64,000 bases of DNA, taken from positions 83,875 to 147,874 of IMG/VR virus record IMGVR_UViG_3300042868_010462; one strand, given 5' to 3'. The notes beneath the pieces were generated by a model. That model did not search any database and was not told where the DNA came from. It saw nothing but the letters and a program-made list of their open reading frames with translations. Each line of letters starts with the position of its first letter. The first letter of the stretch is position 1. This DNA comes from a virus. This document shows, piece by piece, positions 25,648-58,779 of this stretch. The translations under genes and the position numbers were made by a program.

Positions 25648-25746
25648 ATTTTGTTCGTTTTTGTTTGAATTATATTGTTTATTTTTTATGTAGTCAATTC
25701 TACTCACAAACATTTGTTATAAAAAATTAATCCAAACCTTTTTAAC

Positions 25747-44105: not shown

Positions 44106-44545
44106 TCCCCACAATTTTTAATAAATGTATTTGTAATTAATTCACCATAATTTTTGATAAGATAATGTTCCATTTGATAAAATATATTTTCAAACTCCAT
44201 ATCTTCTTCATCAATATTATAATGAGAAGTAAAATTAAAATTATTATAACAAAACTCATTAATTGCCTCAGTTACGACAATAAGAAATTGACTTGGGGTT
44301 TCATAAAGGTCACACATACCAATTTTCTTATCGAAGTCATAAACTTTATGAAATTTATTTTCCATATAGAAATCAATTAAATCAGTAATTCTTTTATCCT
44401 CCAACTCGAAACCAAATCTATCAATAAATTGATTTGTATCCATACCCATCATTCTGGCCGTATTATAGATACCATCTTCCATAACCTTTTTGGATATGGT
44501 TTGTTTTAATTTCTCCAACTTACTTTCCGAAATAATAATTCTCAT
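44102..44545 (-). CDS. Tagged protein with GxxxTARMMGM-type module
   Basis: Start at MRIIISE|SKLEKL (44545). Next comes the helix-turn segment VMEDGIYNTARMMGMDTNQF, also seen in the proteins at 56001, 57346, 57913 and 60414. The body is helical and acidic with ENIFYQMEHYLIKNYG. Unrecognised beyond the shared module. Confidence 0.6.
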   Translation of the reverse strand: MRIIISESKLEKLKQTISKKVMEDGIYNTARMMGMDTNQFIDRFGFELEDKRITDLIDFYMENKFHKVYDFDKKIGMCDLYETPSQFLIVVTEAINEFCYNNFNFTSHYNIDEEDMEFENIFYQMEHYLIKNYGELITNTFIKNCGE

Positions 44546-44557
44546 ATACAATATATA

Positions 44558-44845
44558 TTAACAATTTCCAACATAAGAACCGATGTGAAAATTAATACCT
44601 GAAAATATTGTTTTCAATTCCTCTTTTATTTCTTTTTTTAATCTAACAACATCAATCCAAAAATCATCAGTATTATTTTCATCCCTCCAATCTTGAGATA
44701 TTATAGCCATTATCCAAAACACATCATCCTCATCATAACCATCAACCTCAAAACGACATATCTTACCTGAATATCTATTTAATAATTTATCCAAATACTT
44801 TTGTAATACTCTATCAAATTGATTCTCGTTAATTCTAATCTTCAT
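44558..44845 (-). CDS. Tagged protein (95 aa)
   Basis: Tag MKIRINE|NQFDRVLQKYLD. Compact body (GKICRFEVDGYDEDDVFWIM). Overlaps the previous gene by 11 bases. Unrecognised. Confidence 0.6.
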   Translation of the reverse strand: MKIRINENQFDRVLQKYLDKLLNRYSGKICRFEVDGYDEDDVFWIMAIISQDWRDENNTDDFWIDVVRLKKEIKEELKTIFSGINFHIGSYVGNC

Positions 44846-45158
44846 ATATTATATCGTTGAAAAATAATTTTATATTTGGGAAATGTGTACCAATTAAATA
44901 TTGAATTGTTGCTCTAATATTATCAAAATCCTCTCTATTACCACTAACATAAAAATTAAGATAAACATTTAATCCTGTATATGGCACAATTCTATCAATC
45001 TCAATTCTCTTAACAGATTCCAACTCCTCCAATTCATCCATCTCACCCAATCCCCAATCCTGAGATTCTTCTCTCAAATTATCCAATTCACCATCAATCA
45101 AATTTTGAATGTGTTTTTTGAATTTCTCCAATTGTTTATCCGTGATTTCTACTTTCAT
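44835..45158 (-). CDS. Protein with variant tag (107 aa)
   Basis: MKVEITDKQLEKFKKHIQNL matches the MKIIITEEQ class but has D in place of the cleavage Glu, so it may be uncut or use a later site. First gene of the operon. Body alpha/beta, unrecognised; ends FPNIKLFFNDIIYED. Confidence 0.6.
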   Translation of the reverse strand: MKVEITDKQLEKFKKHIQNLIDGELDNLREESQDWGLGEMDELEELESVKRIEIDRIVPYTGLNVYLNFYVSGNREDFDNIRATIQYLIGTHFPNIKLFFNDIIYED

Positions 45159-45163
45159 AATAT

Positions 45164-45171
45164 ATAAATAT
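45164..45171 (-). promoter_or_regulatory. TATTTATA late-type box
   Basis: TATTTATA on the minus strand, 5 bases before ATG 45158. Confidence 0.5.
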
Positions 45172-45182
45172 CTTAAATAAAA

Positions 45183-45206
45183 AACCCAACTTTTATTGTT
45201 GGGTTG
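45183..45206 (-). terminator. Terminator spanning the stop of the 40-aa gene
   Basis: AACCCAAC/GTTGGGTT stem; the stop codon lies in its loop; T-run follows on the minus strand. Confidence 0.75.
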
Positions 45207-45315
45207 TTAAACATTTTTTCAAAACCTCTTTATTCTCATTCATTCTTTTCAAGGTTTTCTTAAATGATTTTTTACTTTGTCTTTTGTTTCTTGGAACTCT
45301 TTTATTCTTTGCCAT
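45193..45315 (-). CDS. 40-aa highly basic protein
   Basis: Reads MAKNKRVPRNKRQSKKSFKK then TLKRMNENKEVLKKCLTTQQ, with 14 Lys/Arg in 40 residues. A TATTTATA box 10 bases upstream and a terminator at its stop make a complete transcription unit. Its composition suggests nucleic-acid binding, for example DNA condensation in the head, but there is no direct evidence. Confidence 0.6.
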   Translation of the reverse strand: MAKNKRVPRNKRQSKKSFKKTLKRMNENKEVLKKCLTTQQ

Positions 45316-45325
45316 AATTTTTTAA

Positions 45326-45333
45326 TATAAATA
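45326..45333 (-). promoter_or_regulatory. TATTTATA late-type box
   Basis: TATTTATA on the minus strand, 10 bases before ATG 45315. Confidence 0.55.
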
Positions 45334-45347
45334 TACTTCTATAAAAA

Positions 45348-45390
45348 AAAGGTTAGGGACTCAATACGAGTGAAACAAGGAAATCATCAG
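45348..45390 (-). repeat. Intergenic repeat, copy 1
   Basis: Copy of a ~45-base element with core ACTCGTATTG and a C-rich and T-rich end, placed 15 bases upstream of a late-type box. The most diverged of the four clear copies. Confidence 0.55.
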
Positions 45391-45397
45391 ATAATAT

Positions 45398-46048
45398 TTA
45401 ATTATTTTGGTGTTTAAAAGAAAAAGGTCTTTTTATTATTTGACAACACTTTTTACACAACCATTTTTTTTCTTTATCTATTTGTTTGATAGTCCCTTTA
45501 GCATCATTCATCAAACATTCATTATCAAAATCACAATGTTCTAAACCTAAATTATGACCTATTTCATGTAAACATACTTTTTCAACCCTTTCTTTTATAA
45601 TTTCTTTAGATACATTTTTTTTCATTCTGAATGTTGATACAACACAAGTGTTTCCAGGTCTATATCCCAAACCAAGAATACCCCATTCATCAATCATACC
45701 CTTTTTCATTGTAATATCAATTTCAGTAATAATTAATAGATTTTGATTTGAGTCAAATTTTTTTAATATTGTACTTGCACAATATCTTTTTTTACTTTTG
45801 GAAAGTAAATCATCAGTTAATTCAACACGTGGTTTTATTTCACACTTATAATTGTAAAAGGACTCAACTGAATTTTTGATGATGTTTAAATATTCTGGTG
45901 AAACATCACCTAAAGGTAGGATATTAATTTTTGGTTTAATATCTGTTTTTTTAATATTTTTAGATATCTTTTCATTTGTTGGTTTACACGATAATAGAAA
46001 TATTGATGTCACCAAAATTGTTGTAAGTATTATAATTGTATTTTTCAT
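45398..46048 (-). CDS. Archaemetzincin-like lipoprotein (M54)
   Basis: 216 residues. Lipoprotein signal with lipobox-like LLSC at ~18-21. The C-terminus holds CLHEIGHNLGLEHC, NECLMND and WLCKKCC: the catalytic and structural zinc sites of archaemetzincin. Paralogue of the 12324 gene, here lipid-anchored at the envelope. Driven by a host-type promoter with the ATG 4 bases after TATCTTTG. Confidence 0.8.
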   Translation of the reverse strand: MKNTIIILTTILVTSIFLLSCKPTNEKISKNIKKTDIKPKINILPLGDVSPEYLNIIKNSVESFYNYKCEIKPRVELTDDLLSKSKKRYCASTILKKFDSNQNLLIITEIDITMKKGMIDEWGILGLGYRPGNTCVVSTFRMKKNVSKEIIKERVEKVCLHEIGHNLGLEHCDFDNECLMNDAKGTIKQIDKEKKWLCKKCCQIIKRPFSFKHQNN

Positions 46049-46052
46049 AATA

Positions 46053-46083
46053 CAAAGATAATAAACAAAGACCTAACTACAAA
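46053..46083 (-). promoter_or_regulatory. Host-type promoter TTTG-N19-TATCTTTG
   Basis: TTTG (46080-46083), 19 bases, TATCTTTG (46053-46060) on the minus strand; ATG 46048 follows after 4 bases. Confidence 0.75.
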
Positions 46084-46100
46084 AGATTTTCTTATTGTAA

Positions 46101-47171
46101 TTACACAAAATTACTAGTACCTTGAGCCCCAAGTGATTGAGGAGATGGGCATACCTCACTATTTAACATTTTATCGAAATAATTTTTAGAATTATCAACC
46201 AAATAGTTCTCATTGGATTCTGATAATACAAAAACTTTAGCTTTATCCCAATATTTTTGTAAAATATTCAAAAATTCTGTTGTTAAATTTATGCAACCAT
46301 ATGATAAATCTAAATTTAAACCACCAGTGGATACCGCATTTATAAATTCCTTTTTTGCCTCAGGGTTTTTAACATCTCCCAAAAACTTTTTTGCCTTTTG
46401 TAATACTAATGTTCGTGGTTGTTCTAGGTAATAACCATGAATTGCTTGTGTGTATTGTTTGTTATTTTGAACCAAATGTTTTATATTATTTATCTTTCCC
46501 GCATACGATGCGTCACTCGTAATCGTACCCATATCATAAACACCAGGAGAGGTAAACCTCTTGTTATTTCTATCTATCCAATCATACACATAATCATGAT
46601 TGTATTTTCTATTCTGACTTGTTTGGTCAACATATCCCTTACCATTAATCCATTTAAAACCCGCTTTGATAGCTGACTCATCCCAAGATAACATAGCATT
46701 TGCTATATCCGTAGGGTTAGTGGGTTGTTTGTTTTTTCCTGAAATAATTACATCTTTCGCAATAAAATTACCATTCGGGTCAAACAGATATATCAATTGA
46801 TTTAAAGTGTCAACTACAATCAAATTATAAGTTCTCATCAATGGTCTAATACAATTCAAAGCAATTTCACAAGAAATTCTATCATTCTTTATTGTTTTAT
46901 AATACATTTCAGCTCTTTTATTTATTAAATTATTAATATAATTCCAAATAGTTGTATCAACTGTAATCGATGGTAAATTAAGTTGTTTTTTGTAAAAATC
47001 GTAAATATTTTCAATATCAACAATTTGTTTAGAGTCCTTATTAATATAAGGACAAAATTGTTTTTGTCTCTCTGATGATTTTTTAATTTCAGGTTTTGAT
47101 TCTTGTTCACTCAAAATACCATACAATAATTTGATTAAAACCTTTTCCTCCTCCGTAATTCTAACTTTCAT
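46101..47171 (-). CDS. Tagged L,D-transpeptidase-like protein (YkuD fold)
   Basis: 356 residues. Tag MKVRITEEEKVLIKLLYGI then LSE|Q. The N-terminal half is helical. A catalytic-like region includes LIVVDTLNQLIYLFDPNGNF (YkuD opening strand), QAIHGYYLEQPR and LDLSYGCINLT, the His and S-x-G-C-x-N motif of L,D-transpeptidases. Would modify or trim peptidoglycan crosslinks; in the head it could act on the wall on delivery. An unusual enzyme for a phage. Confidence 0.75.
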   Translation of the reverse strand: MKVRITEEEKVLIKLLYGILSEQESKPEIKKSSERQKQFCPYINKDSKQIVDIENIYDFYKKQLNLPSITVDTTIWNYINNLINKRAEMYYKTIKNDRISCEIALNCIRPLMRTYNLIVVDTLNQLIYLFDPNGNFIAKDVIISGKNKQPTNPTDIANAMLSWDESAIKAGFKWINGKGYVDQTSQNRKYNHDYVYDWIDRNNKRFTSPGVYDMGTITSDASYAGKINNIKHLVQNNKQYTQAIHGYYLEQPRTLVLQKAKKFLGDVKNPEAKKEFINAVSTGGLNLDLSYGCINLTTEFLNILQKYWDKAKVFVLSESNENYLVDNSKNYFDKMLNSEVCPSPQSLGAQGTSNFV

Positions 47172-47182
47172 AAATTTTTATT

Positions 47183-47190
47183 TATAAATA
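47183..47190 (-). promoter_or_regulatory. TATTTATA late-type box
   Basis: TATTTATA on the minus strand, 11 bases before ATG 47171. Confidence 0.6.
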
Positions 47191-47201
47191 TATCAGTCAA
47201 A

Positions 47202-47236
47202 TAATAATCCCCACCTATGTAAGAGTGGGGATTATT
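47202..47236 (-). terminator. Hairpin terminator
   Basis: AATAATCCCCAC/GTGGGGATTATT, 12-bp stem after the gene ending at 47242; T-run weak. Confidence 0.6.
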
Positions 47237-47241
47237 AAATT

Positions 47242-47859
47242 TTAAACCAACCTTCTAATTATTTCTCGTATCTTGGCTTCAGATATATTTGTACCTCCAC
47301 CATCCAACTTATCAGTAAAACCTTTCAACTTATCAAATGCTGGATGAGAAGATATTGGTTCTTTTTTTGCATCCTTCATAACATCCCAAGTTGATGGCTT
47401 AATCTTCATATGGTTTTTAACCAAATATTTTATTTCATCAACATCAGTTCCTTCATAAGATTCAACCCAATCTCTAAATTGTTCAACATATTTTTCTGAT
47501 TTATCTTCATGTCCATATGCGGTAGGTTCTCCTGTCTTAGGATTAATTCCATAGGTATCCATTTTACCCAAATCATGAAATAATGCGGTCATTATCATAT
47601 TGGGGTCATCAGGATAATGATGATACGCCCTCTTGATTACAACCAAAATATGTTTTAATGAATTACCCTCAGGATGCCATTTTGGATTCTGTTTTGCATC
47701 CCATTGTTTGAATAATAATTCTTTTAATTCTTGGGGTAAATCATCATATAATTCTCTATACGATTTTGGAAATTCTTTTTTGTTTTCTTCCATTTCATTT
47801 ATTGTTTGTTTAACCAAACTTAATAAATCTCTTTCAGTTAGTCTAATTATTTTTTTCAT
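47242..47859 (-). CDS. Tagged HD-domain phosphohydrolase
   Basis: 205 residues. Tag MKKIIRLTERDLLSLVKQT then INE|M. HD superfamily: His70 in LKHILVV, His95-Asp96 in ALFHDLGKMDTYG, a later His in GHEDKS and KNHMK. Metal-dependent phosphohydrolase of nucleotides or cyclic dinucleotides. A packaged enzyme of this type could destroy a host nucleotide signal on entry, for example in anti-phage signalling, but this is speculation. Confidence 0.8.
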   Translation of the reverse strand: MKKIIRLTERDLLSLVKQTINEMEENKKEFPKSYRELYDDLPQELKELLFKQWDAKQNPKWHPEGNSLKHILVVIKRAYHHYPDDPNMIMTALFHDLGKMDTYGINPKTGEPTAYGHEDKSEKYVEQFRDWVESYEGTDVDEIKYLVKNHMKIKPSTWDVMKDAKKEPISSHPAFDKLKGFTDKLDGGGTNISEAKIREIIRRLV

Positions 47860-47862
47860 ATT

Positions 47863-48399
47863 TTAGTTTTTATTTATAAAGTCATTATATACATTCTCAT
47901 CAAAGAAAAATCTACCCCCCAATTCCACAGAATTAACACCATAGTCATATCTATAATCATTATCAAGATATGCCTTGATTAAATCACCACCATCCACAGT
48001 TATGGTTACCAATGGAGAACCCTTTTTTTCATATGAAACATCATCATCCACCCTTTCCTCATTTCCCTCACCAATATATTCAAAGTCATCATTCATAAAA
48101 CCCAATAACATATCAACCTCTTGCTTTAATCTTTCAGGATTTATATAATCACCATAGTTAGAAAAGAAATCATCAATTTCATCCTTAAATTGTTCATAGG
48201 TAGGATATTCACTTGATTCATCATCATTTGTCATTTCAAATTCATCATCACCATCCATTTCCATTAATGGTTTTACATTTCCCAAACTTGATTTCAATAA
48301 TTTATTGAATTTTTGTGTTTCAACAATCAAGGAATTATTATATTGTTCCAAGATTCTATTTTTTTCTTCACCAGATAAATCGTTTAATAAATGTTTCAT
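47863..48399 (-). CDS. Tagged acidic protein (178 aa)
   Basis: The tag MKHLLNDLSGEEKNRILE|Q is of the same class as 17497. Acidic body (GDDEFEMTNDDESSEYPTYE) with Gly/Tyr-rich end. Start of a two-gene unit with the HD protein (3-base gap). Unrecognised. Confidence 0.6.
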   Translation of the reverse strand: MKHLLNDLSGEEKNRILEQYNNSLIVETQKFNKLLKSSLGNVKPLMEMDGDDEFEMTNDDESSEYPTYEQFKDEIDDFFSNYGDYINPERLKQEVDMLLGFMNDDFEYIGEGNEERVDDDVSYEKKGSPLVTITVDGGDLIKAYLDNDYRYDYGVNSVELGGRFFFDENVYNDFINKN

Positions 48400-48410
48400 A
48401 ATTTTTTATT

Positions 48411-48418
48411 TATAAATA
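48411..48418 (-). promoter_or_regulatory. TATTTATA late-type box
   Basis: TATTTATA on the minus strand, 11 bases before ATG 48399. Confidence 0.6.
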
Positions 48419-48430
48419 TATTTTATTTCA

Positions 48431-48475
48431 AAAAAGGGGTTGGGGATTGAATACGACCGAAGGGAGAAAAATTAT
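48431..48475 (-). repeat. Intergenic repeat, copy 2
   Basis: On the plus strand AAAAAGGGGTTGGGGATTG followed by AATACGACCGAAGGGAG. Lies between a stop codon and the next late-type box. Confidence 0.6.
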
Positions 48476-48476
48476 A

Positions 48477-48911
48477 TTATAATAACCCCATTATCGATTT
48501 AATCTCCATCTTCAATTTATCAAAATCAGGCATCTTAAAATAACCCTGCCATACCAATGTCTTCCCATTCTCCATATTCATTGTCGTACCCACTCCATTA
48601 ATTAATTTCTTTGACAGTTCAACATTAGATGTGGGACTAGTAACAAACAAACGATATGTACTCTCATCATCAACAATCTTAGGTCCAACCTTCAACTCTA
48701 ATTCCCCACCATTCTTACCCTTATAATATAATTGATTGTTGACAAAAACCATCCCCAATTCCTTACCAATCTTTTCCATATCAATCTTACCTTGAAAGGT
48801 GGGAACACCAGGAGGAGCTTGGTCAATATACAAATCAACATTCTGCTCAGAAATTATTCTATTTACCAATTTAATTAATTCACCCTCTGTTAATCTTATA
48901 ATTCTTTTCAT
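48477..48911 (-). CDS. Tagged protein (144 aa)
   Basis: Tag MKRIIRLTEGELIKLVNRI then ISE|Q. The body has a Pro/Gly-rich start (DQAPPGVPTFQGK) and a beta-rich centre (QLYYKGKNGGELELKVGPKI). Unrecognised. Confidence 0.6.
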   Translation of the reverse strand: MKRIIRLTEGELIKLVNRIISEQNVDLYIDQAPPGVPTFQGKIDMEKIGKELGMVFVNNQLYYKGKNGGELELKVGPKIVDDESTYRLFVTSPTSNVELSKKLINGVGTTMNMENGKTLVWQGYFKMPDFDKLKMEIKSIMGLL

Positions 48912-48924
48912 AAATCAATTTTAA

Positions 48925-48932
48925 TATAAATA
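48925..48932 (-). promoter_or_regulatory. TATTTATA late-type box
   Basis: TATTTATA on the minus strand, 13 bases before ATG 48911. Confidence 0.55.
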
Positions 48933-48941
48933 TACAAAATT

Positions 48942-48985
48942 AAAAAGGGGCTGGGGATTTGAATACGAGTGAAACGAGAAAATAT
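48942..48985 (-). repeat. Intergenic repeat, copy 3
   Basis: On the plus strand AAAAAGGGGCTGGGGATTTG then AATACGAGTGAAACGAG. Just upstream of the box at 48925. Confidence 0.65.
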
Positions 48986-49012
48986 AAAACCCCACTCTAT
49001 AATGAATGGGGA
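48985..49012 (-). terminator. Terminator
   Basis: CCCCATTC/GAGTGGGG stem plus TTTTATATTTT on the minus strand, next to repeat copy 3. Confidence 0.65.
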
Positions 49013-49019
49013 AACTAAT

Positions 49020-49562
49020 TTACCTAATAATAAGATTAGGATTTATCTTTATGTTTTCAAATATAGTGTCAAAATTATAAATGATGATATTTCTACTTTC
49101 ATAATCAGTAATATCCTTTATGTAATAACCAGTAGTTGCCGACAAACTATTATGTTCCATCTTGGTTACTGTCACCGTAACATTGTACTTATATAAAAAA
49201 TCAGTAAACTCCTCAATCGTCATATCAGGGTTTTGTTGAAGATATTCCAATAACAACACAACAATAACAACCCTATTAACAACATGCTCCTTAACTATCT
49301 TAAACTCATCCTTTTTAAGTTCACTAATCATCCCATTCTTTTTCATTTCCTTTATCACTTTCTCCAATTCAATTACACCAACAGATTTTAATCCAGTATC
49401 AAAAAAAGAAACATCAAATATCTGACTCCTTAATGAACTAACCAAAGCATCGTATAATATAATATCATTATTCCTAGCTTCAATACAATCTTTTAAACAT
49501 CCTTTGATAAGAATATAACAAGCTTTAATTCTTACTTGCTGACTTGGACTTAATTTTTTCAT
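49020..49562 (-). CDS. Untagged helical protein (180 aa)
   Basis: Start MKKLSPSQQVRIKACYILIK (ATG 49562); the frame continues upstream only through a promoter-like TATCTTTG. Mostly helical with a hydrophobic centre (VVNRVVIVVLLLEYLQQNPD). No tag, host-type promoter, so probably early or middle. Unrecognised. Confidence 0.6.
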   Translation of the reverse strand: MKKLSPSQQVRIKACYILIKGCLKDCIEARNNDIILYDALVSSLRSQIFDVSFFDTGLKSVGVIELEKVIKEMKKNGMISELKKDEFKIVKEHVVNRVVIVVLLLEYLQQNPDMTIEEFTDFLYKYNVTVTVTKMEHNSLSATTGYYIKDITDYESRNIIIYNFDTIFENIKINPNLIIR

Positions 49563-49685
49563 TTTAGTATTTTTTTTTGTTAGTAATCTCAACAAAGATA
49601 TTACTATTTCACAATTTCTAAAATTTTTCCAAAAATATTTTTTTTACAATTTCACTTATATTTGTACACATCAGATTTTTTCCCA

Positions 49686-49731
49686 AAAAATGGGTTGGGG
49701 ATTTGAATACGAGTGATAACGAGAAAATTAT
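49686..49731 (-). repeat. Intergenic repeat, copy 4
   Basis: On the plus strand AAATGGGTTGGGGATTTG then AATACGAGTGATAACGAG; begins at the stop of the HNH gene. Confidence 0.6.
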
Positions 49732-50477
49732 AATTCCGCAATTTGTTGCTCAATTAATTCTTTATATAACGGATGTTCTTTATACTCTTTCAATAGGCTA
49801 AAATAAAAATTAATCTTTTCATCTATCCTTTGTCCCGCAGGTTGTGATGTATCCCATAACTCCAAATTCTCAATTCTATTGTCAGTCCTTATCCCATTTA
49901 TATGATGTATGTTTTGGTGGGGTAATAATTTGATTCCGTAGTGTTGTTCATATATAACCCTATGTTCTCGCATCCCTCTGAATTCACCATGTCTATATTC
50001 AAGATATCCCTTCCCATTAACTATTGGTTCACCCCCCTTCCAATTATAATGATTAGACCCCGACATTCTTTCACTAACAATATCTTTAACCAAACATCCA
50101 CAAGACCTTGTTGGATTTTGTTTTTTTGTCAAATCCTTTCTGAAAACATCCACCTCATTACCACAATCACATTGACATTTCCATTTAACACCATAGTTCT
50201 TTACCGACTCAACAAATTCAGTAACAACTAATCTACCTACCCTCATACCTATTATATTGTCAATTCCTTTTTCCTTTTTTACATAGGTTTTTTTGTGACG
50301 TTCTTTTCGCTTGAGCAATATTGATTCTTTGTTTTTTTCATATTCATTTTTCTTTCTAATACTAGTACAAGGTTTACAATAACTAGCCTTACCATATGTC
50401 CCCTTTTTGTCATTGAAAAAATCATCCAGTACCTTCCCAATTTTACAAGAACTACACACTTTTTTTACTCCACACAT
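49728..50477 (-). CDS. HNH homing endonuclease with zinc motifs
   Basis: Start MCGVKKVCSSCKIGKVLDDF (ATG 50477); upstream in-frame Met at 50537 precedes the promoter-like box. 249 residues. N-terminal zinc ribbon CSSC...YCKPC; middle CQCDCG...SCGC zinc site; HNH_3-type core EHRVIYEQHYGIKLLP, NIHHINGIRTDNRIENLELW. Typical of mobile phage HNH endonucleases. Close to the origin-like region. Confidence 0.8.
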   Translation of the reverse strand: MCGVKKVCSSCKIGKVLDDFFNDKKGTYGKASYCKPCTSIRKKNEYEKNKESILLKRKERHKKTYVKKEKGIDNIIGMRVGRLVVTEFVESVKNYGVKWKCQCDCGNEVDVFRKDLTKKQNPTRSCGCLVKDIVSERMSGSNHYNWKGGEPIVNGKGYLEYRHGEFRGMREHRVIYEQHYGIKLLPHQNIHHINGIRTDNRIENLELWDTSQPAGQRIDEKINFYFSLLKEYKEHPLYKELIEQQIAEL

Positions 50478-50492
50478 ATTATTCGATTTTTT

Positions 50493-50524
50493 TAAAGATA
50501 GGAGTAATTTTCCAATTTCCCAAA
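50493..50524 (-). promoter_or_regulatory. Host-type promoter for the HNH gene
   Basis: TTTG (50521-50524), 20 bases, TATCTTTA (50493-50500) on the minus strand; last base deviates from consensus. Confidence 0.5.
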
Positions 50525-50539
50525 ATTTTTTTTTCAATA

Positions 50540-50884
50540 TAGGGACATTTTTCCAATTTTCAGAATTTTTTCCATAAATATTTTTTCACCCATATACTTT
50601 GTTTAGGGGATTGTCCCCCCTTTTTACGAAAAATACGACAAATATAGGGAGGGGGGATACGGAGGAGGGGGGTATATACCCATACCACCCCCCATATAGG
50701 CCACCAACCCCACCCATACCATTTCAAACAATCAAATAAAATAGATAGCCCCTCCTATGTCAAATGAAACCCTATGACAATATGACATAGGTAATGCTCT
50801 CGTATATGATGGGGATATGAACATAGTTATCCACTGACAAGATGACAATGTGGATAACAATAATAAAATAAAGATGGGGGAATG
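50540..50884. other. Divergent non-coding, origin-like region
   Basis: No ORF. Contains GGGG-N5-CCCC hairpins, a G-rich run (50647-50672) with six- and six-G blocks opposite a six-C block (50688-50693), TGACAATATGACATAGG/TGACAAGATGACAATG repeats, and an inverted pair GTTATCCAC (50826) / GTGGATAAC (50850), i.e. DnaA-box-like TTATCCACT and TTATCCACA. Genes diverge on either side. Origin function is inferred. Confidence 0.45.
50826..50858. repeat. Inverted DnaA-box-like pair
   Basis: GTTATCCAC and its reverse complement GTGGATAAC, 15 bases apart. TGTGGATAA at 50849-50857 is an exact complement of the DnaA box TTATCCACA. Confidence 0.55.
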
Positions 50885-50916
50885 TTTGGTAATGCCGGCA
50901 CCATATATTACCTTTG
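50885..50916 (+). promoter_or_regulatory. Host-type promoter TTTG-N20-TACCTTTG
   Basis: TTTG (50885-50888), 20 bases, TACCTTTG (50909-50916), 27 bases before ATG 50944. Confidence 0.65.
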
Positions 50917-50943
50917 TTGTTCACACTTAAATCAAGAACCAAT

Positions 50944-51318
50944 ATGAAGAAGACATTATTATTAATGTTGGTTGGGGGTTCATTGTATTCTCAGGGAATA
51001 GATTGTTCGAGTATGTTCAACCCCACCAATAAGACCATTCAATTAATTGACTCACTTAATATGAGTGAGATGACCTATCGTGTACAGGTTGTATCATCAT
51101 CCTATGTAGACAGGAATAAGTTTGGTAAGTATTTGAGGACGCATAGATGTGAGGTGGACTATTGTTTATTACCGAGTGGTAGGGAAGTATATAGATATAC
51201 CATATCCCCAACCATTGTTAATAGTTATACTGAGGCATTGAAGTTGATGGAGGTATTGAATAGGACTTATGATAATCCGTTTGTGGTAATGTATCGCAAG
51301 GGGAAAAGAATTAATTAG
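50944..51318 (+). CDS. Secreted protein (124 aa)
   Basis: Start MKKTLLLMLVGGSLYSQGID; ten in-frame codons upstream overlap the promoter and are excluded. Signal peptide ~1-17. The body has three Cys (IDCSSMF, HRCEVDYC) and an alpha/beta pattern resembling an SPOR-like domain (YRVQVVSSSYVDRNKFGKYL). Peptidoglycan association would follow if SPOR-like. Confidence 0.55.
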   Translation: MKKTLLLMLVGGSLYSQGIDCSSMFNPTNKTIQLIDSLNMSEMTYRVQVVSSSYVDRNKFGKYLRTHRCEVDYCLLPSGREVYRYTISPTIVNSYTEALKLMEVLNRTYDNPFVVMYRKGKRIN

Positions 51319-51324
51319 AAATGT

Positions 51325-51355
51325 TTTGTAGTGTGGGGATGGTTTATTATCTTTG
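51325..51355 (+). promoter_or_regulatory. Host-type promoter TTTG-N19-TATCTTTG
   Basis: TTTG (51325-51328), 19 bases, TATCTTTG (51348-51355); fixes the next gene's start at ATG 51378. Confidence 0.75.
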
Positions 51356-51377
51356 TTGTATCACAAACACCACCACT

Positions 51378-51746
51378 ATGATTGAAAACATTGTAAAGAA
51401 ACTTATGAAGGGAAAGACATTTACTTGTCAGGGATATGGATTGACCATTACTTACAAGGTGAATGTTAATGTGAAGATTGATAGTAGACATTGGAAGGGA
51501 GAGTATAAGTATATTGATTTGAACATCAAGGTGATTGAATGTGTTAGAAGTGGTTATGGTCGTAATATTACCTTATTTAAGAATGGTAGGGGTAATAGGA
51601 GTGACTATAGAGATGTACAGGATATTGTTAGACAAGATATGAATAAGTGGGTGTCCCCAATCTTCTCTACACATTTTTATAGAAACTATTACACATTAAT
51701 TACGCATCTTACTGAGATTAGAATAAACCGTTATACATATAGTTAA
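51378..51746 (+). CDS. Hypothetical basic protein (122 aa)
   Basis: Start MIENIVKKLMKGKTFTCQGY; earlier Met codons at 51321 and 51339 lie in the promoter. Beta-rich, basic (YKVNVNVKIDSRHWKGEYKY). Unrecognised. Confidence 0.6.
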   Translation: MIENIVKKLMKGKTFTCQGYGLTITYKVNVNVKIDSRHWKGEYKYIDLNIKVIECVRSGYGRNITLFKNGRGNRSDYRDVQDIVRQDMNKWVSPIFSTHFYRNYYTLITHLTEIRINRYTYS

Positions 51747-51747
51747 T

Positions 51748-51906
51748 ATGATTTACTTAATAGTAATACCGACCATCCTCGTTTTAATATGGTGGTTTAT
51801 CTTTTATCTTGGGGAGAAAGTTTCCAAGAGATATCCCACCTCTTTGTTTGCCAAGTTTTGGAATAACTACATTTGTATGGGTATTCCTGATAACGAGGAT
51901 ATGTAA
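51748..51906 (+). CDS. 52-aa single-TM protein
   Basis: MIYLIVIPTILVLIWWFIFY then a soluble tail LGEKVSKRYPTSLFAKFWNN and a short acidic end. 1-base gap to the previous gene; overlaps a convergent gene by 40 bases. Unrecognised. Confidence 0.55.
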   Translation: MIYLIVIPTILVLIWWFIFYLGEKVSKRYPTSLFAKFWNNYICMGIPDNEDM

Positions 51907-52190
51907 TCTTTTAGTTTGGCAAGAGAATCAGTTCTTATCTCCATTTGGAGCTTGGTTAAATCCCCCTCGTTGAGTGGGGATTTTTCATTTATATAATCTA
52001 TGATTTCGAACATATATACTTGTGTCAGCAGATAGACAGGTTCAGTTTGGTATTTGGACCTTTGTTCCCATTCTTTATAATTACATCCCCCTACTATTGT
52101 CATTGTATCTTCTTGTATTGTGTATATAACATGATACTCCTTGTCTACTTGTTCTATTATGGTGGGGATATTGGATAGATAATTGTTCAT
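51867..52190 (-). CDS. Hypothetical protein (107 aa)
   Basis: Helical and polar (IPTIIEQVDKEYHVIYTIQE, TQVYMFEIIDYINEKSPLNE). The only minus-strand gene in the 51-57 kb interval. Unrecognised. Confidence 0.5.
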   Translation of the reverse strand: MNNYLSNIPTIIEQVDKEYHVIYTIQEDTMTIVGGCNYKEWEQRSKYQTEPVYLLTQVYMFEIIDYINEKSPLNEGDLTKLQMEIRTDSLAKLKDYISSLSGIPIQM

Positions 52191-52211
52191 AACTTTGTTT
52201 ATAAAATGTAC

Positions 52212-52233
52212 CTGACGCTATGTCAGTGGATAA
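52212..52233. repeat. CTGAC dyad plus DnaA-box-like site
   Basis: CTGACGCTATGTCAG dyad (52212-52226) runs into GTGGATAA. TGTCAGTGGATAA (52221-52233) is the 13-bp exact reverse complement of 50827-50839. Confidence 0.5.
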
Positions 52234-52794
52234 GTTTATGTGTTAAAATTGTTAAAAAATTTGAAAATGTCATTATGTCAGGTGGAGGGGACAATCCCTT
52301 TGAAGGGTTTTATGGTAATTAATTCCCACCTTTTCCCACAACTTACCACTGATAAATACATTCCAGCGTATTAAAAACCCACTTTTTTGTGTCTGGCGGT
52401 ATCTGTAGAGGTATTTTTTTTACTATATACATTTCCCAGATAAAAATGTTAGTTATATATTTGAGTCGGGTGGGACATGTAATGTCTTAGGAATAGTATT
52501 AATATATGTTATAAAATGAATACTTCAACCCCCATCTTTGATGGAATTAATCGTATCTTTAAGTATCAAATCGTATCATATTTTGATGGATTACCATAAC
52601 AATCCTTTCATAAACCCCTTATATAATTTACCAATATATTTCCTGGAATGATATGGAATATCTATTATGAAATACCATAGTAAATTACTATCTTAGAGGA
52701 CATTTCCCCACTTACCATATGTAGAGTCGAAGACATATAGAAAAGTGTTGTATGGGGGAATTGTGTGGGTTATATAATGGATTACCATAATGGT

Positions 52795-52880
52795 GGGGAT
52801 TATATGTAAATGAATATAGTATTGGTAAAATATGGTCTTTTAGATGGGGGATTATATGTGAATGAATATAATGTAGTATT
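52795..52880. repeat. Direct repeat pair
   Basis: GGGGATTATATGTAAATGAA (52795) recurs with one change at 52847; both continue with TATA...GTATT. Confidence 0.5.
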
Positions 52881-52995
52881 AATATATGAACGAGGGGAAT
52901 GACATTCATAACGGAGTGGTTTGACCCCGACCGTAGGGATGGGGGAAAAATGAATGGAAATGGAGGTGAGTGAGTATATTAATATTACATTATGG

Positions 52996-53003
52996 TATTT
53001 ATG
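52996..53003 (+). promoter_or_regulatory. TATTTATG late-type box for the LRR operon
   Basis: TATTTATG, 19 bases before ATG 53023; the only such box before the nine-gene block 53023-57912. Confidence 0.5.
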
Positions 53004-53022
53004 TAGATAATATAATTTGAAT

Positions 53023-53475
53023 ATGAAACTAATAATAACTGAAGAACAATATAGATTACTGATTGAGAATGAAGATGGTAAGAATCTTATTGATTTAACA
53101 TCATTTGAGAATTTGAAACCATCAGCTTTGGATGATATGTTTTTACATATTAATAAAAAGAAGGGTGGGAAGTATGATGGATATTATATTGATGGGGATT
53201 TGGATTTATATGAAAGAGAGGCCGATGTTACCACTTTGGATTATTTGGTTAAGGTTGGTGGTAATCTTTATTTGGCAAATACAAAAATAGAATCTTTACC
53301 AAGATTGACTGAGGTTGGTGGTTTTTTGAATATAACAAAAACCAAAATAAAATCATTACCAAAGTTATCATCGGTTGGGGGTTATTTGGCTTTACTTTTT
53401 ACTCCCCTCTCTAAGAAGATTAGTAAAGAAGAATTGGAGAAACAAATAAATGTTGGAAGAGAAATATATCTATGA
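53023..53475 (+). CDS. Tagged leucine-rich-repeat protein, paralogue 1
   Basis: 150 residues. Tag MKLIITE|EQYRLLIE|NE, then a short linker and LRR-like units of ~22 residues: LVKVGGNLYLANTKIESLPR, LTEVGGFLNITKTKIKSLPK, LSSVGGYLALLFTPLSKK. Shortest member of the set. Stop and next start overlap (ATGA). Confidence 0.75.
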   Translation: MKLIITEEQYRLLIENEDGKNLIDLTSFENLKPSALDDMFLHINKKKGGKYDGYYIDGDLDLYEREADVTTLDYLVKVGGNLYLANTKIESLPRLTEVGGFLNITKTKIKSLPKLSSVGGYLALLFTPLSKKISKEELEKQINVGREIYL

Positions 53476-54065
53476 AACTAATAATAACTGAAGAACAATA
53501 TAGATTAATCATTGAGAATGAAAATGGTGGTAAGTTATTTACTATACCAACTGAATTAATAAAGGATGAAGAAGGTATTGATAAACTATTCACATTATAT
53601 CATAAAACTAAATCTAAAAAAGGTTGGGTTGGTATAAAGATTTTGGGTGACTTGAACTTGAGAATAATGAACTTTGACGATACTTTTCACTTATTTAGTT
53701 TATTACCTGAAATTGTTTATGTTAAGGGAAATATTTTATTACCTGAATATGATTTTGATTTCGATTTTAATAAATTGGAATATGTTGGTGGTAGTTTTAG
53801 AGGTCATTTGACAGGTGAAGTGTTATTACCAAAATTAAAAAAGGTTATGGGGTTTTTATCGTTATCTGTTAGTAATCTTACATCATTACCCGAACTAGAA
53901 TATGTTGGAGGTGGTTTGAATTTGAGGCAAACACAGATAAGTGAATTACCAAAATTAAAATATGTTGGTGAGGCAATGAGCTTGATGGGGACACCCTTTG
54001 CTAAGAAAACAAATAGAGAGGAACTAAGAAATAAAATACAAGTAGGAGGAAATATATTATTATGA
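53472..54065 (+). CDS. Tagged leucine-rich-repeat protein, paralogue 2
   Basis: 197 residues. Same tag as its neighbours; the linker carries GWVGIKILGDLNLRIMNFDD, then repeats LEYVGGSFRGHLTGEVLLPK, LKKVMGFLSLSVSNLTSLPE, LEYVGGGLNLRQTQISELPK, and the cap LKYVGEAMSLMGTPFAKK. The final GGNILL matches the other members. Binding surface residues differ between paralogues. Confidence 0.78.
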   Translation: MKLIITEEQYRLIIENENGGKLFTIPTELIKDEEGIDKLFTLYHKTKSKKGWVGIKILGDLNLRIMNFDDTFHLFSLLPEIVYVKGNILLPEYDFDFDFNKLEYVGGSFRGHLTGEVLLPKLKKVMGFLSLSVSNLTSLPELEYVGGGLNLRQTQISELPKLKYVGEAMSLMGTPFAKKTNREELRNKIQVGGNILL

Positions 54066-54712
54066 AACTAATAATAACTGAAGAACAATTAAGATTGATT
54101 ATTGAAAGTGAGGGTGATGGTAAATTATTTAATGTGCCTAATGCTTTTTTACAAACAATAGGTGGTGTAACTAAGACCTTAAATCTTTATAACAAATTAA
54201 AAGATGTTAAAGGATTTGATGGAATTAAGGTTATTGGTAAATTGGATTATTATGAGATTGACGCTGATGATAATGATGACTTGGATAATTTCACCAATGA
54301 GGTTGTTTATATTGATGGAACTTTAATTTTGGCTGAAGAAAATCCTGATAATAATTTCGGTAAATTGAAAGTTATTGATGGTAATTTGAGAGGTTCTGAG
54401 GTTGATAATATTTCATTCCCCAATTTGGAATATGTAACTGGTGATGTTAGTTTGGAAGATAGTGGTATTAGTGAATTACCGAAACTGAAAGAGGTTGATG
54501 GTTGTTTATATTTACAAAGAACAGGTATTCATTCATTACCAGAATTGAAATCTGTTGGATTACATTTGAATCTTTATAACACAATTATTAAGGATTTACC
54601 TAAGTTAGAAATTGTTCAGGGTGTATTGACATTGAGACATACACCTTTAGCTGATAAAAAAAATGAAGAGAAACTAAGAAAAATACAAGTAGGAGGACAT
54701 CTTAATTTATGA
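54062..54712 (+). CDS. Tagged leucine-rich-repeat protein, paralogue 3
   Basis: 216 residues, longest of the tandem four. Tag MKLIITE|EQLRLIIE|SE. An acidic insertion (YEIDADDNDDLDNFTNEV) precedes repeats of LEYVTGDVSLEDSGISELPK, LKEVDGCLYLQRTGIHSLPE and LKSVGLHLNLYNTIIKDLPK type. Confidence 0.78.
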   Translation: MKLIITEEQLRLIIESEGDGKLFNVPNAFLQTIGGVTKTLNLYNKLKDVKGFDGIKVIGKLDYYEIDADDNDDLDNFTNEVVYIDGTLILAEENPDNNFGKLKVIDGNLRGSEVDNISFPNLEYVTGDVSLEDSGISELPKLKEVDGCLYLQRTGIHSLPELKSVGLHLNLYNTIIKDLPKLEIVQGVLTLRHTPLADKKNEEKLRKIQVGGHLNL

Positions 54713-55281
54713 AAATAATAATAACAGAAGAACAATATAGATTATTGATTGAGGGTGAGGGTAGATTACTTCCTGTACCTGAAGATATGTGGAATCAAGA
54801 TGGTGGTATTACAAAGATTTATAGTTTATTTGACAAGACCAAGGACACTAAGAATTGGGTTGGTATAAAGGTAATTGGTGATTTGAGTTTAACATATGAG
54901 GATGACGAACATCTTAAAGATTTCTGTGAATACTTAGTTGAGGTTACAGGTGATTTTGAAATGTCAAACAGAAAAAGATTTGAATTTCCTTTATTAATTA
55001 AAGTTGATGGTGATGTTAATATTGCGAACTCGGATATTGATTTTCCAAAATTGAGATATGTTGGGGGTGATTTTAGAGGAAGAGGAAGTGATACTGAGGA
55101 ACTACCTGAATTGGAATATGTTGGTGGGTCATTATCATTAAGAGAAACTTTTATTCAGGATTTGCCAAAATTGAAATATGTTGGTGATGTATTGAATATT
55201 ATGGATTCATCCCTCTCTAAGAAAACTACTGAGAAAGAATTAAGAAGTAAAATAAATGTTGAAGGAAACATATGGTTATGA
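54709..55281 (+). CDS. Tagged leucine-rich-repeat protein, paralogue 4
   Basis: 190 residues. Tag MKIIITE|EQYRLLIE|GE. Linker NWVGIKVIGDLSLTYEDDEH, repeats LRYVGGDFRGRGSDTEELPE, LEYVGGSLSLRETFIQDLPK, cap LKYVGDVLNIMDSSLSKK. Coupled by ATGA overlap to both neighbours. Confidence 0.78.
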   Translation: MKIIITEEQYRLLIEGEGRLLPVPEDMWNQDGGITKIYSLFDKTKDTKNWVGIKVIGDLSLTYEDDEHLKDFCEYLVEVTGDFEMSNRKRFEFPLLIKVDGDVNIANSDIDFPKLRYVGGDFRGRGSDTEELPELEYVGGSLSLRETFIQDLPKLKYVGDVLNIMDSSLSKKTTEKELRSKINVEGNIWL

Positions 55282-55676
55282 AGTTAATAATTACAGAATC
55301 TCAATATAAGGAACTTAATAAGATTGATGATATCTATGATGGTTTAGACCCATATTATCGTAGGAGGATTGATTATATTGATATAAAGGACGATATTGAT
55401 ATGAGGATTGGATTTAGGCAAGTTTTTCCTTCTCAAAGGGAAGCTTTGCACGGGCGTATGAATGTTCTTAAGAAAAGTCCTCGTGGTATTGATGGACATA
55501 TCGATGATATAATTCATAATGTTGTTTGGAGTACAATACCTGATGAGTGGGGTGGAAGTGAAGATGAAAGATTATTTGATTATGTTAATGAAATGACAGA
55601 TAGAGTTAAAAAGAAATATCGTGGTTATATAATGGGTAAATTACTTAAAATGCTTGAAGATGAGGATAATAATTAA
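55278..55676 (+). CDS. Tagged protein of the ELNKIDD family, copy 1
   Basis: Start MKLIITE|SQYKELNKIDD (ATG 55278 in the overlap). 132 residues, basic helical body (PYYRRRIDYIDIKDDIDMRI, VKKKYRGYIMGKLLKMLED). Paralogue of the next gene. Unrecognised family. Confidence 0.65.
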   Translation: MKLIITESQYKELNKIDDIYDGLDPYYRRRIDYIDIKDDIDMRIGFRQVFPSQREALHGRMNVLKKSPRGIDGHIDDIIHNVVWSTIPDEWGGSEDERLFDYVNEMTDRVKKKYRGYIMGKLLKMLEDEDNN

Positions 55677-56004
55677 TGAATCTCAATATGACGAACTAAA
55701 TAAGATTGATGATGTCTATGATGGATTGAAACCTTATTTTAGGAGGAGAATTAAATATATTAATATTCCTGAGGCAATTGATAGGGTAATTAAAAATATT
55801 GACAGATTTTATGATAAGACCGCGACATTTCATTATTTAGTTACAAGGGTTATTAGTAATGTCGTATGGGAAACTATACCTGATGAAATGGGTGCAAATA
55901 CTAATATGGAATTATTTGAATATCACGATACAATGGCCGCCAACATAATGGACAAGTATGGTGAATACATTAAAAGATTGGTTAGAAAAAGAATGGATAA
56001 ATGA
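55660..56004 (+). CDS. Tagged protein of the ELNKIDD family, copy 2
   Basis: MRIIINE|SQYDELNKIDDVY; starts 17 bases inside the previous gene. 114 residues with YFRRRIKYINIPEAIDRVIK and a conserved VWETIPDEMG (VWSTIPDEWG in copy 1). Function unknown. Confidence 0.65.
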   Translation: MRIIINESQYDELNKIDDVYDGLKPYFRRRIKYINIPEAIDRVIKNIDRFYDKTATFHYLVTRVISNVVWETIPDEMGANTNMELFEYHDTMAANIMDKYGEYIKRLVRKRMDK

Positions 56005-56576
56005 AGGTAATAATAACTGAAGAACAATTTGATAAGTTCACAACTAAGATTAGACAACTAATTGACAACCAAGGTTTTATTGAGGCGAGTGAAATGATGG
56101 GTATCAATAAATTGAAGCTTGCTGAAATGAGTAATCTTCCTATAAAAGGTGATATCAGAGATTCAAGATTTACTGATGATAATGAAATTGTTGCAAGTGA
56201 TTTGTTGTCTGATTTGGTAAAGAAAGATGACAAATATAAAACTTGTAATCTTGAATATTTTATTGATGGAGTATTATTGTGGGAATGTAGATTTAAGGAT
56301 GAGGAAAATTATTATTATGTTGGTGTTGATGCAACACCATATTGGGCGGGTTATGAGAAAACACAAGTATCTATAACAAATATTCATATAGCACCAATTG
56401 ATTCACCTGAGGACAAAGAAGAATATGTAATAAACATATATGATGAAGAGTTTGATTGTCCTAAATCATTTGAAAATGTGAGTGAATTTGTTGATTGGTT
56501 TGAGAATGAATATAAACCAAAAACATATAATTACATTAAAACTTTACTTGATAGATTTAAAAAAGAACAATTATGA
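56001..56576 (+). CDS. Tagged protein with MMGINKLKLAEM module
   Basis: 191 residues. Tag MKVIITE|EQFDKF; then EASEMMGINKLKLAEMSNLP, a helix-turn-helix-like module; then a domain with CNLEYFIDGVLLWECRFKDE and a C-terminal EFVDWFENEY. Closest relative: 57346, with the same domain order. Unrecognised fold. Confidence 0.65.
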   Translation: MKVIITEEQFDKFTTKIRQLIDNQGFIEASEMMGINKLKLAEMSNLPIKGDIRDSRFTDDNEIVASDLLSDLVKKDDKYKTCNLEYFIDGVLLWECRFKDEENYYYVGVDATPYWAGYEKTQVSITNIHIAPIDSPEDKEEYVINIYDEEFDCPKSFENVSEFVDWFENEYKPKTYNYIKTLLDRFKKEQL

Positions 56577-57346
56577 AAATAATAATAACTGAAGAACAAC
56601 ATAGATTGATTAAAGAATCAAAAGGAAAATTGGCCAAGATTAGTTTGAAATCTTTACCTGGTGATTCTAATGAAGAGAGATATCTTAACTTTATGAAACT
56701 ATATAAGAAGGCCAAGGAAGCTAAAGGTTTCACTGGTATTCATATCATTGATGATTTGAACTTGAGCACGGCATTTATTAAATCATTGGGTGAGATTAAG
56801 AAAATTGATGGTGATTTATATTTAAGATTTTCATTTGTTGAAGACCTTGGTGATTTGGAATATGTTGGTGGTAATGTGTATTTGAAAGGGTCTGACCATT
56901 TAAAATCTCTTGGTAATCTTAGAGAAGTTGGTGGTGAATTGTCTATTGAAGATTGTGTTGAATTGGAAGATTTGGGTCAATTGGAAACTGTTAAAACCAT
57001 TAAAGGATTGGAGACCACAAAGGTTACAAGTTTGGGTAATCTTAAAGAAATTGGTTATCTTTGGGGAGGTAATGATGTAGATATTACCGAAAATATTAAA
57101 TCATTGGGTGAGTTGAGAAAGGTTGAAAAGTATCTTGATTTAAGTAAAAGTAAAATTGAAACTTTGGGTAACTTGGAATATGTTGGTGATTGGTTAGATT
57201 TAACCGATTCTCGAGTAGAAGATTTGGGTAATTTGAAGTTTGTTGGTTCTAGTATGAGTATATGGAGAACTCCATTATCTAATAAATATGACCCCAATGA
57301 AATCGAAGAAATGGTTGATATTCAAGGGGTATTAAATTACGACTAA
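56573..57346 (+). CDS. Tagged leucine-rich-repeat protein, paralogue 5
   Basis: 257 residues, the longest LRR. Tag MKIIITE|EQHRLIKE|S; repeats use LGNL instead of LPKL (VEDLGDLEYVGGNVYLKGSD, IETLGNLEYVGDWLDLTDSR), about eight units. Separated from the other four by three non-LRR genes. Confidence 0.78.
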   Translation: MKIIITEEQHRLIKESKGKLAKISLKSLPGDSNEERYLNFMKLYKKAKEAKGFTGIHIIDDLNLSTAFIKSLGEIKKIDGDLYLRFSFVEDLGDLEYVGGNVYLKGSDHLKSLGNLREVGGELSIEDCVELEDLGQLETVKTIKGLETTKVTSLGNLKEIGYLWGGNDVDITENIKSLGELRKVEKYLDLSKSKIETLGNLEYVGDWLDLTDSRVEDLGNLKFVGSSMSIWRTPLSNKYDPNEIEEMVDIQGVLNYD

Positions 57347-57912
57347 TGAAAATAGTAATTACAGAAAATCAAATGGATAAGTTTGCCCAAAAATTAAGAA
57401 TGGGTATTGAAAAACATGGGTTCACTGATACTGCCAGAATGACAGGTATGAATAAGTTGAAATTAGCTGAACTTAGTGGATTACCAATCAAAGGAGATAC
57501 ATTCCATAGTGAAAACGAAATTGTTGTTGGTGATTTACTTAGAGATTTGGTTAATCAAAATAGAGAATACAAAACTTGTGAATTACATTATTCTGGATTA
57601 GAGGGTATAGTTGAATGGAATTGTAGGTTTAAGGATGATGAAAACTATTATAGATTAACTATTGCTGCTACACCATATTGGGATGGTAATAATACACCTA
57701 TTGATATGTTTAATGTTGAAGTAACTCCAATTTACTCACCTGAGGATAAAAAAGAGTTTGAAACTATTAATGATTATTTACACGAATTCGATTGTCCTAA
57801 ATCATTTGAAAATGCTAATGAATTGATGGATTGGTTTAGGGAAATCTATATTCCAAAAACATATGATATTATTGTAAAAAGTTTAGAGGATTTTAAGGAG
57901 AGGGAATTGTAA
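57346..57912 (+). CDS. Tagged protein with MTGMNKLKLAEL module
   Basis: 188 residues. Tag MKIVITE|NQMDKF; module TARMTGMNKLKLAELSGLPI; domain with CELHYSGLEGIVEWNCRFKD and CPKSFENANELMDWFREI. One-base overlap with the LRR gene. Paralogue of 56001. Confidence 0.65.
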   Translation: MKIVITENQMDKFAQKLRMGIEKHGFTDTARMTGMNKLKLAELSGLPIKGDTFHSENEIVVGDLLRDLVNQNREYKTCELHYSGLEGIVEWNCRFKDDENYYRLTIAATPYWDGNNTPIDMFNVEVTPIYSPEDKKEFETINDYLHEFDCPKSFENANELMDWFREIYIPKTYDIIVKSLEDFKEREL

Positions 57913-58404
57913 CTATCTCAAATTATGATTTATATCTAAATCTATTTTCATTGGTGTAAATGGTACAACAATATCATAAATAATATCATCTATTTCACTT
58001 TGTATTTCCCACCAAAAATCTTTTTCCCACAAATCAGAGTCCCATAAGTCATATGTTTCACCATCAATTAAAATTAGTGTAACTTCACCCTTTAATATTT
58101 TTACATATACAGCCCAAGTATCATTCATTCCCCAATCAATATCTGTAATCATAAAATTAAAATCATATCCACCAGTTTTAATTTCAAAATCTTTTATTGA
58201 GAACTCTTTATCAATGAAGAAATCTTTGGCCAAATCAATTGGTGTGGTGTCAAGTGTTTTGGCAACATTATTAACACCAAATAATTTGATAGATTCGATT
58301 AATCCTTTTTTTTCAATTAGATTAATCATTTTATCTTTGGGTGATATTGATTCATTTACCCCCATCATTTCTTGTATTCTATTTAATTGTTCTTGTAGGT
58401 TCAT
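57913..58404 (-). CDS. Tagged protein (163 aa), QEQLNRIQEMMG class
   Basis: Tag MNLQEQLNRIQE|MMG. Then IESIKLFGVNNVAKTLD, similar in layout to the MGMNKL module, and a Trp/Asp-rich C-terminal domain (TDIDWGMNDTWAVYVKILKG, DLWDSDLWEKDFWW). Convergent with 57912, no gap. First of the minus operon's downstream end. Unrecognised. Confidence 0.65.
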   Translation of the reverse strand: MNLQEQLNRIQEMMGVNESISPKDKMINLIEKKGLIESIKLFGVNNVAKTLDTTPIDLAKDFFIDKEFSIKDFEIKTGGYDFNFMITDIDWGMNDTWAVYVKILKGEVTLILIDGETYDLWDSDLWEKDFWWEIQSEIDDIIYDIVVPFTPMKIDLDINHNLR

Positions 58405-58778
58405 TTTACAATTGCAGGTATTTTATCAACATTTAACAAATTTAATAGGTTTGCTCTATGATTTCCATCTTTTAAATGATAAGTATCATCAGGTAATTTA
58501 ATTAATAATACTGGGTCAGATTTAACATATTTGTATATTGATTCAATAATTTCTGGCATTTCTCTTAATTTGAGTATCAAATCTTTAAATGAATTAAAAT
58601 TGGGTAAGTCAAAATTTTCTTCATTTGATATATGCTTTAATAAACTAACCATTGATTCAGGAGTAAATCCTTGTGTCCCTACTGAACCATTTGGTCTTCT
58701 GAGTTCATCAGTTGGAATTAATTTATAATCAATCCCCATCATTTCTTGTATTCTATTTAATTGTTCTTGTAAGTTCAT
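58401..58778 (-). CDS. Tagged ParB-like protein
   Basis: Start MNLQEQLNRIQE|MMGIDYK (ATG 58778); the longer frame begins in the next gene's end. 125 residues. The C-terminus has DTYHLKDGNHRANLLNLLNV, the G-N-H-R core of ParB/sulfiredoxin-fold nucleotide-binding domains. Could be a nuclease, CTPase or kinase-like fold; activity unknown. Confidence 0.65.
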   Translation of the reverse strand: MNLQEQLNRIQEMMGIDYKLIPTDELRRPNGSVGTQGFTPESMVSLLKHISNEENFDLPNFNSFKDLILKLREMPEIIESIYKYVKSDPVLLIKLPDDTYHLKDGNHRANLLNLLNVDKIPAIVK

Positions 58779-58779
58779 A

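What the first reader, a model, noticed from the sequence alone, without database searches (positions are those of the whole stretch)
50540..52233. Candidate replication origin
Seen: divergent transcription, inverted TTATCCAC pair including an exact DnaA-box complement, a 13-bp exact inverted copy at 52221, TGACA-type repeats, and G/C runs rare in this genome. Known: DnaA boxes are TTATCCACA. A phage using host DnaA, or mimicking its sites, is the reading.
Basis: partly seen in the sequence, partly recalled or inferred. Interest (0 to 1): 0.6.

Follow-up and report, generated by a model that had tools for sequence, protein, structure and literature searches.

The report
Candidate jumbo-phage replication origin
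A stretch of mostly non-coding DNA in this large Bacteroidota-type phage is one copy of a two-armed DNA element that recurs once per genome in about 17 distinct, often very large, uncultured phages, and it is most likely where they start copying their DNA.

Summary
The window is part of a 148-kb linear record of a T4-like large phage. Each arm carries TGTCA/TGACA direct repeats and an outward-facing GGGGAYAATCCC core, with TTATCCAC-type boxes on the inner side. A scan with the core composite hit 29 stretches of viral contigs. In 22 contigs checked (about 17 distinct phages; largest 326 and 308 kb) it is a single locus, usually an outward-facing pair 1.2-1.8 kb apart; a Markov simulation gave none. 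In one subgroup perfect DnaA boxes (TTATCCACA) concentrate there: 6 of 11 in a 326-kb contig, 6 of 8, 5 of 7, 5 of 6. In others, including this window, boxes are degenerate. A small orphan protein family (window 51,867-52,190) starts just inside the right arm in nearly all. The right outward neighbour varies in strand; no RNA covariation was seen.

Best explanation: a replication origin (about 0.6). Use of host DnaA is less certain (about 0.3). GC skew gives no consistent support; read depth could not be tested. Main rival: a regulatory region for the small protein.

The parts
50480..50605 (-). Outer flank of the left arm: A/T-rich, two 41-nt repeats (50,487-50,527; 50,528-50,568); overlaps the 5' end of the HNH ORF as called
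   Evidence: Repeats; partly conserved in the left-arm alignment
50606..50620 (-). Left-arm core, GGGGGGACAATCCCC on the minus strand, facing outward
   Evidence: 12-bp exact inverted partner of 52,287-52,298; conserved in 12 of 13 left arms aligned (the 13th is truncated in the core)
50651..50662 (-).
   Evidence: GTATCCCCCC essentially invariant in 13 left arms
50754..50792 (+). Dyad CCTATGTCA ... TGACATAGG enclosing TGACAATATGACA
50826..50858 (+). Dyad GTTATCCAC-TGACAAGATGACAAT-GTGGATAAC; contains the single exact TTATCCACA of the locus (50,849-50,857, minus)
   Evidence: similar units in relative G024
50885..50916 (+). Bacteroidota sigma-A-type promoter, TTTG-N20-TACCTTTG
   Evidence: motif 10 non-coding of 21, 1.9 expected
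50944..51318 (+). Small gene, secreted SPOR-like protein by eye; no database match; not conserved at the locus
51325..51355 (+). Second sigma-A-type promoter, TTTG-N19-TATCTTTG; lies in a 75% identical 40-nt copy of the first
51378..51746 (+). Orphan gene (122 aa), shared only with loci G042 and G043 and near-identical strains
51867..52190 (-). Conserved small protein of the locus (107 aa; predicted fold beta4-alpha2), starts just inside the right arm
   Evidence: family in 17 of 19 loci; AlphaFold2 pLDDT 89; no confident fold match
52211..52233 (-). Right-arm box TTATCCACTGACATAGCGTCAGG
   Evidence: box at about -62 from the core in most relatives
52268..52280 (+). TGTCATTATGTCA direct repeat
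52287..52301 (+). Right-arm core GGGGACAATCCCTTT, facing outward
52379..52447 (+). Right-arm second block: CCACTTTTTTGTGTCTGGCGGTA ... TTTTTTTTACTATATACATTTCCCAGATAAAAA
   Evidence: second identity peak, 0.70
52448..53016 (.). Rest of the non-coding spacer; the next gene is at least 563 bp beyond the core in all 19 loci (one short ORF in G041 set aside)

Best explanation
The locus is the replication origin, or the main one, of a group of large T4-like phages whose hosts are probably Bacteroidota. It is a bipartite cis element. Two arms face outward and flank a 1.2-1.8 kb island with one conserved small gene. Each arm pairs TGTCA/TGACA direct repeats with a GGGGAYAATCCC core, and TTATCC-type boxes lie on the inner side. 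Proposed mechanism (inferred): an initiator, either host DnaA on the TTATCCACA boxes or a phage protein (perhaps the small orphan protein) on the TGACA dyads, assembles on both arms; A/T-rich DNA beside the boxes opens; the phage replisome is loaded and forks leave outward. Shown: the element, its conservation, its one-locus-per-record occurrence, its symmetry, box clustering in one subgroup, the conserved small gene. Inferred: origin function, the identity of the initiator, opening, fork direction.
For: One locus per record in 22 contigs including 326 kb and 308 kb, usually as an outward-facing inverted pair; 0 composite hits in 6 x 326 kb Markov simulations. Core spacing and sequence conserved while most genes between the arms differ between phages. 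TTATCCACA in locus versus record: G033 6/11, G036 6/8, G035 5/7, G041 5/6, G024 5/6, binomial P 1e-7 to 2e-12. At least 563 bp of non-coding DNA beyond the right core in the 19 loci, with the outward neighbour on either strand, which a promoter for that gene would not explain. No RNA covariation and no Rfam match, so it probably acts as DNA. A relative carries its own DNA polymerase and primase. Precedent: T4 oriE has iterons near a transcription strand switch (PMC3016281).
Against: No consistent GC-skew switch: cumulative skew follows gene strand, and strand-split third-position skew goes the expected way in the window's contig but the opposite way in G033. Exact DnaA boxes are absent from the locus in several relatives (G001, G034, G039, G040, G042, G043, G045). 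The strongest box statistics come from one subgroup of related phages. No replication gene was recognised beside the locus. No read depth, no experiment. The records are linear and may be fragments.
Confidence: 0.6

Rival explanations
1. A regulatory region: a phage or host transcription factor (possibly the small orphan protein, autoregulating) binds the TGACA dyads and controls the small gene and neighbouring early genes.
For: The small gene starts just inside the right arm in 17 of 19 loci. In the window two sigma-A-type promoters serve the plus genes, the first about 27 bp from the TTATCCAC dyad. Dyads enclosing direct repeats look like operators.
Against: The left arm has no conserved inward gene; the conserved block extends more than 200 bp upstream of the small gene; two outward-facing copies once per genome and perfect DnaA-box clusters are not needed for one small operon.
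Confidence: 0.2
2. Another once-per-genome cis site, such as a partition/centromere-like site, a packaging start or a recombination hot spot.
For: One inverted-repeat-rich locus per record; a ParB-like PHROG family matched one protein in the adjoining 45 kb.
Against: The structural genes matched in the window's phage (portal, capsid, terminase) lie in the 50-66 kb part of the record or nearby, about 70 kb from the locus; it would not account for perfect TTATCCACA boxes; no partition gene was recognised beside the locus.
Confidence: 0.15
3. Chance clustering of short motifs in a G/C-run-rich, recently acquired island next to an HNH endonuclease gene.
For: In the window alone the 8-mer count equals chance; the island is compositionally odd; an HNH gene is adjacent.
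Against: The same element recurs in about 17 distinct phages with fixed order and spacing; the G/C runs are themselves conserved parts of the arms.
Confidence: 0.03

Closest known systems
Phage T4 oriE (iteron-bearing T4 origin; PMC3016281)
   Same: Non-coding repeats in a T4-like phage near a transcription strand switch; small accessory genes (repEA, repEB) linked to it
   Different: [quoted passage not shown] T4 uses several origins with no shared motif
DnaA-box origins (bacterial oriC; iteron plasmid origins)
   Same: Clusters of TTATCCACA in both orientations beside A/T-rich DNA and direct repeats, in one subgroup
   Different: Boxes degenerate or missing in other members; two separate arms; no consistent GC-skew switch; no dnaA or rep gene recognised beside it
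T4 oriF/oriG (R-loop origins; PMC3016281)
   Same: A promoter close to A/T-rich DNA at a candidate origin
   Different: Host sigma-A-type promoters here, seen in the window only; MotA-type middle promoters not tested; no conserved outward transcript known

Membership tests
DnaA-dependent replication origin | Cluster of DnaA boxes (TTATCCACA) well above the genome background | tested here: inconclusive
   Met in one subgroup (6/11, 6/8, 5/7, 5/6, 5/6 in locus); not met in the window's phage (1/5) and 0 in several relatives
DnaA-dependent replication origin | Change of GC-skew sign at the origin | tested here: not met
   No consistent switch in G033 or G001; mixed result in the window's phage
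DnaA-dependent replication origin | Read-depth peak at the site | not testable with these tools
   No reads available
DnaA-dependent replication origin | DnaA binds the boxes | not testable with these tools
   Host unknown; a look upstream of dnaA in Bacteroidia genomes gave too few boxes to compare
T4 oriE-type origin | Evenly spaced 12-nt iterons | tested here: not met
   No such array in the repeat and tandem-repeat scans; repeats are TGACA pairs 8 bp apart inside dyads
T4 oriE-type origin | repEA/repEB homologue beside it | tested here: inconclusive
   Small conserved protein present but without any family or fold match; not compared directly with RepEA/RepEB
Bidirectional promoter/operator region | Conserved divergent genes on both sides | tested here: not met
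   Right outward neighbour is on the plus strand in 7 and on the minus strand in 12 of 19 loci
Structured non-coding RNA | Rfam match or covarying base pairs | tested here: not met
   No Rfam match up to E = 1; consensus fold -5.5 kcal/mol, no covariation support

The most novel reading that the evidence does not exclude
A new class of phage origin: two outward-facing arms, each with TGACA repeats and a GGGGAYAATCCC core, flanking the gene of a dedicated small initiator with a beta4-alpha2 fold, in a lineage of large Bacteroidota phages, with host DnaA boxes gained or lost between members.
Probability: 0.3. Interest if true: 0.75.

Novelty: new variant of a known kind. Interest (0 to 1): 0.6.

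Why it matters
The papers searched here did not describe a sequence-defined origin in jumbo phages: a full-text search joining DnaA box, jumbo phage and origin of replication returned nothing, and a 2026 jumbo-phage review holds neither 'origin of replication' nor 'DnaA'. A conserved, sequence-defined locus gives a precise target for depth analysis in existing metagenomes, a marker for this phage group, and a concrete test of whether T4-like large phages can start replication through host DnaA.

Tried and rejected
GC skew, plain and split by gene strand: no consistent switch. RNA-element reading: no Rfam match, no covariation; single-strand folding of the left gap not unusual. Homologues of the island proteins in phages, viral contigs and bacterial genomes: only near-identical strains at first; relatives came from DNA patterns. 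A match in unrelated contig L024 is within chance expectation by my own estimate. Genome-contig scan with the core composite: the one hit read (L238) looks like coding DNA unrelated to the element, the rest were not examined. Closest annotated cultured relative found by the capsid protein, Flavobacterium phage immuto: element absent with up to 3 mismatches, known positives found. DnaA boxes upstream of dnaA in Bacteroidia: uninformative. Correction: the 516-aa query is not the capsid protein; the capsid gene is the neighbouring 622-aa ORF.

Full report
What the window is. The window is bases 83,875-147,874 of a 147,874-base linear viral record. Pfam and PHROG scans show T4-type portal, capsid, prohead protease and terminase proteins, with DnaK. 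A near-identical record, G014, extends 45 kb to the right and adds DnaJ, thymidylate synthase and a TonB-dependent-receptor-like protein, which suggests a Bacteroidota host. A published lineage of large aquatic phages with predicted Bacteroidota hosts and DnaK/DnaJ (moraphages, PMC12619734) may be the same group; this was not tested.

The observation. The raw count of TTATCCAC in the window equals chance, so the case rests on clustering and on the TGACANNNTGACA motif, whose only three copies in 148 kb lie here. The interval is too short: the right arm continues to about 52,450.

The element in other phages. A pattern joining TGACANNATGACA to TTATCCAC led to contig G024, where six of seven TTATCCAC lie in two clusters 1.7 kb apart beside an HNH-like gene in the same position as in the window (the HNH call for G024 is by eye). 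Aligning the window with G024 and G025 showed a conserved non-coding block. A pattern from its core, TGTCAGN{2,26}GGGGAYAATCCCTTT, hit 29 stretches. In 22 contigs the slightly shorter composite marks one locus each, usually as an outward-facing pair 1.2-1.8 kb apart, with 0 hits for the reversed control pattern and 0 in 6 x 326 kb of Markov-4 sequence. Some contigs are near-duplicates, so I count about 17 distinct phages.

Anatomy. Right arm: box at about -62, TGTCA repeat at about -28, core at 0, then a second block ending in TTTTTACTATAT and a short A-rich stretch. Left arm: GTATCCCCCC, TGTCA repeats, GGGGGGAYAATCCCC. Mean pairwise identity peaks at the right core (0.72-0.74) and at the second block (0.70). 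Covariation analysis found no RNA structure.

Genes. The only conserved gene tied to the locus is a small protein family starting just inside the right arm (17 of 19 loci). AlphaFold2 gives a confident beta4-alpha2 model, but neither the PDB nor the viral library holds a confident match. The right outward neighbour is on the plus strand in 7 loci and on the minus strand in 12, at least 563 bp away, setting aside one 75-aa ORF in G041.

DnaA boxes. Exact TTATCCACA counts in locus versus record are 6/11 (G033), 6/8 (G036), 5/7 (G035), 5/6 (G041) and 5/6 (G024; the total of 5 used is corrected). Several other members have none at the locus. Binomial P values ignore shared ancestry.

Skew. Cumulative skew in G033 and G001 shows no turning point at the locus. 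Third-position skew, split by gene strand, moves in the direction expected for outward forks in the window's contig but the opposite way in G033.

Judgement. I hold the origin reading at 0.6, a regulatory region at 0.2, another once-per-genome cis site at 0.15 and chance at 0.03. Host DnaA as the initiator I hold at about 0.3. ORF calls are mechanical, the records are linear and may be fragments, and hosts are inferred.

Noticed in passing
window 43,656-59,727 and 19 related loci: Many proteins share N-termini of the ITEEQ / LTESDL type (one single-linkage cluster, 118 members over 19 loci) in a phage with a T4-type prohead protease: candidate capsid-targeting peptides.
   Followed up: no
whole 148-kb record: TATAAATA/TATTTATA: 36 of 57 copies non-coding against 4.8 expected, read by eye as TATTTAT on the sense strand shortly upstream of genes: a candidate phage late promoter.
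   Followed up: partly
whole 148-kb record: TTTG-N18-21-TAnnTTTG occurs 21 times, 10 non-coding against 1.9 expected: Bacteroidota-type host promoters.
   Followed up: partly
window 53,017-57,346: A run of plus-strand paralogues with ITEEQ starts, several repeat-like, expanded in G042 and G043 as well (cluster 15).
   Followed up: no
window 45,398-46,048: Predicted M54-family metalloprotease.
   Followed up: no
window 23,782-25,713: Full-length DnaK/Hsp70-like gene.
   Followed up: no
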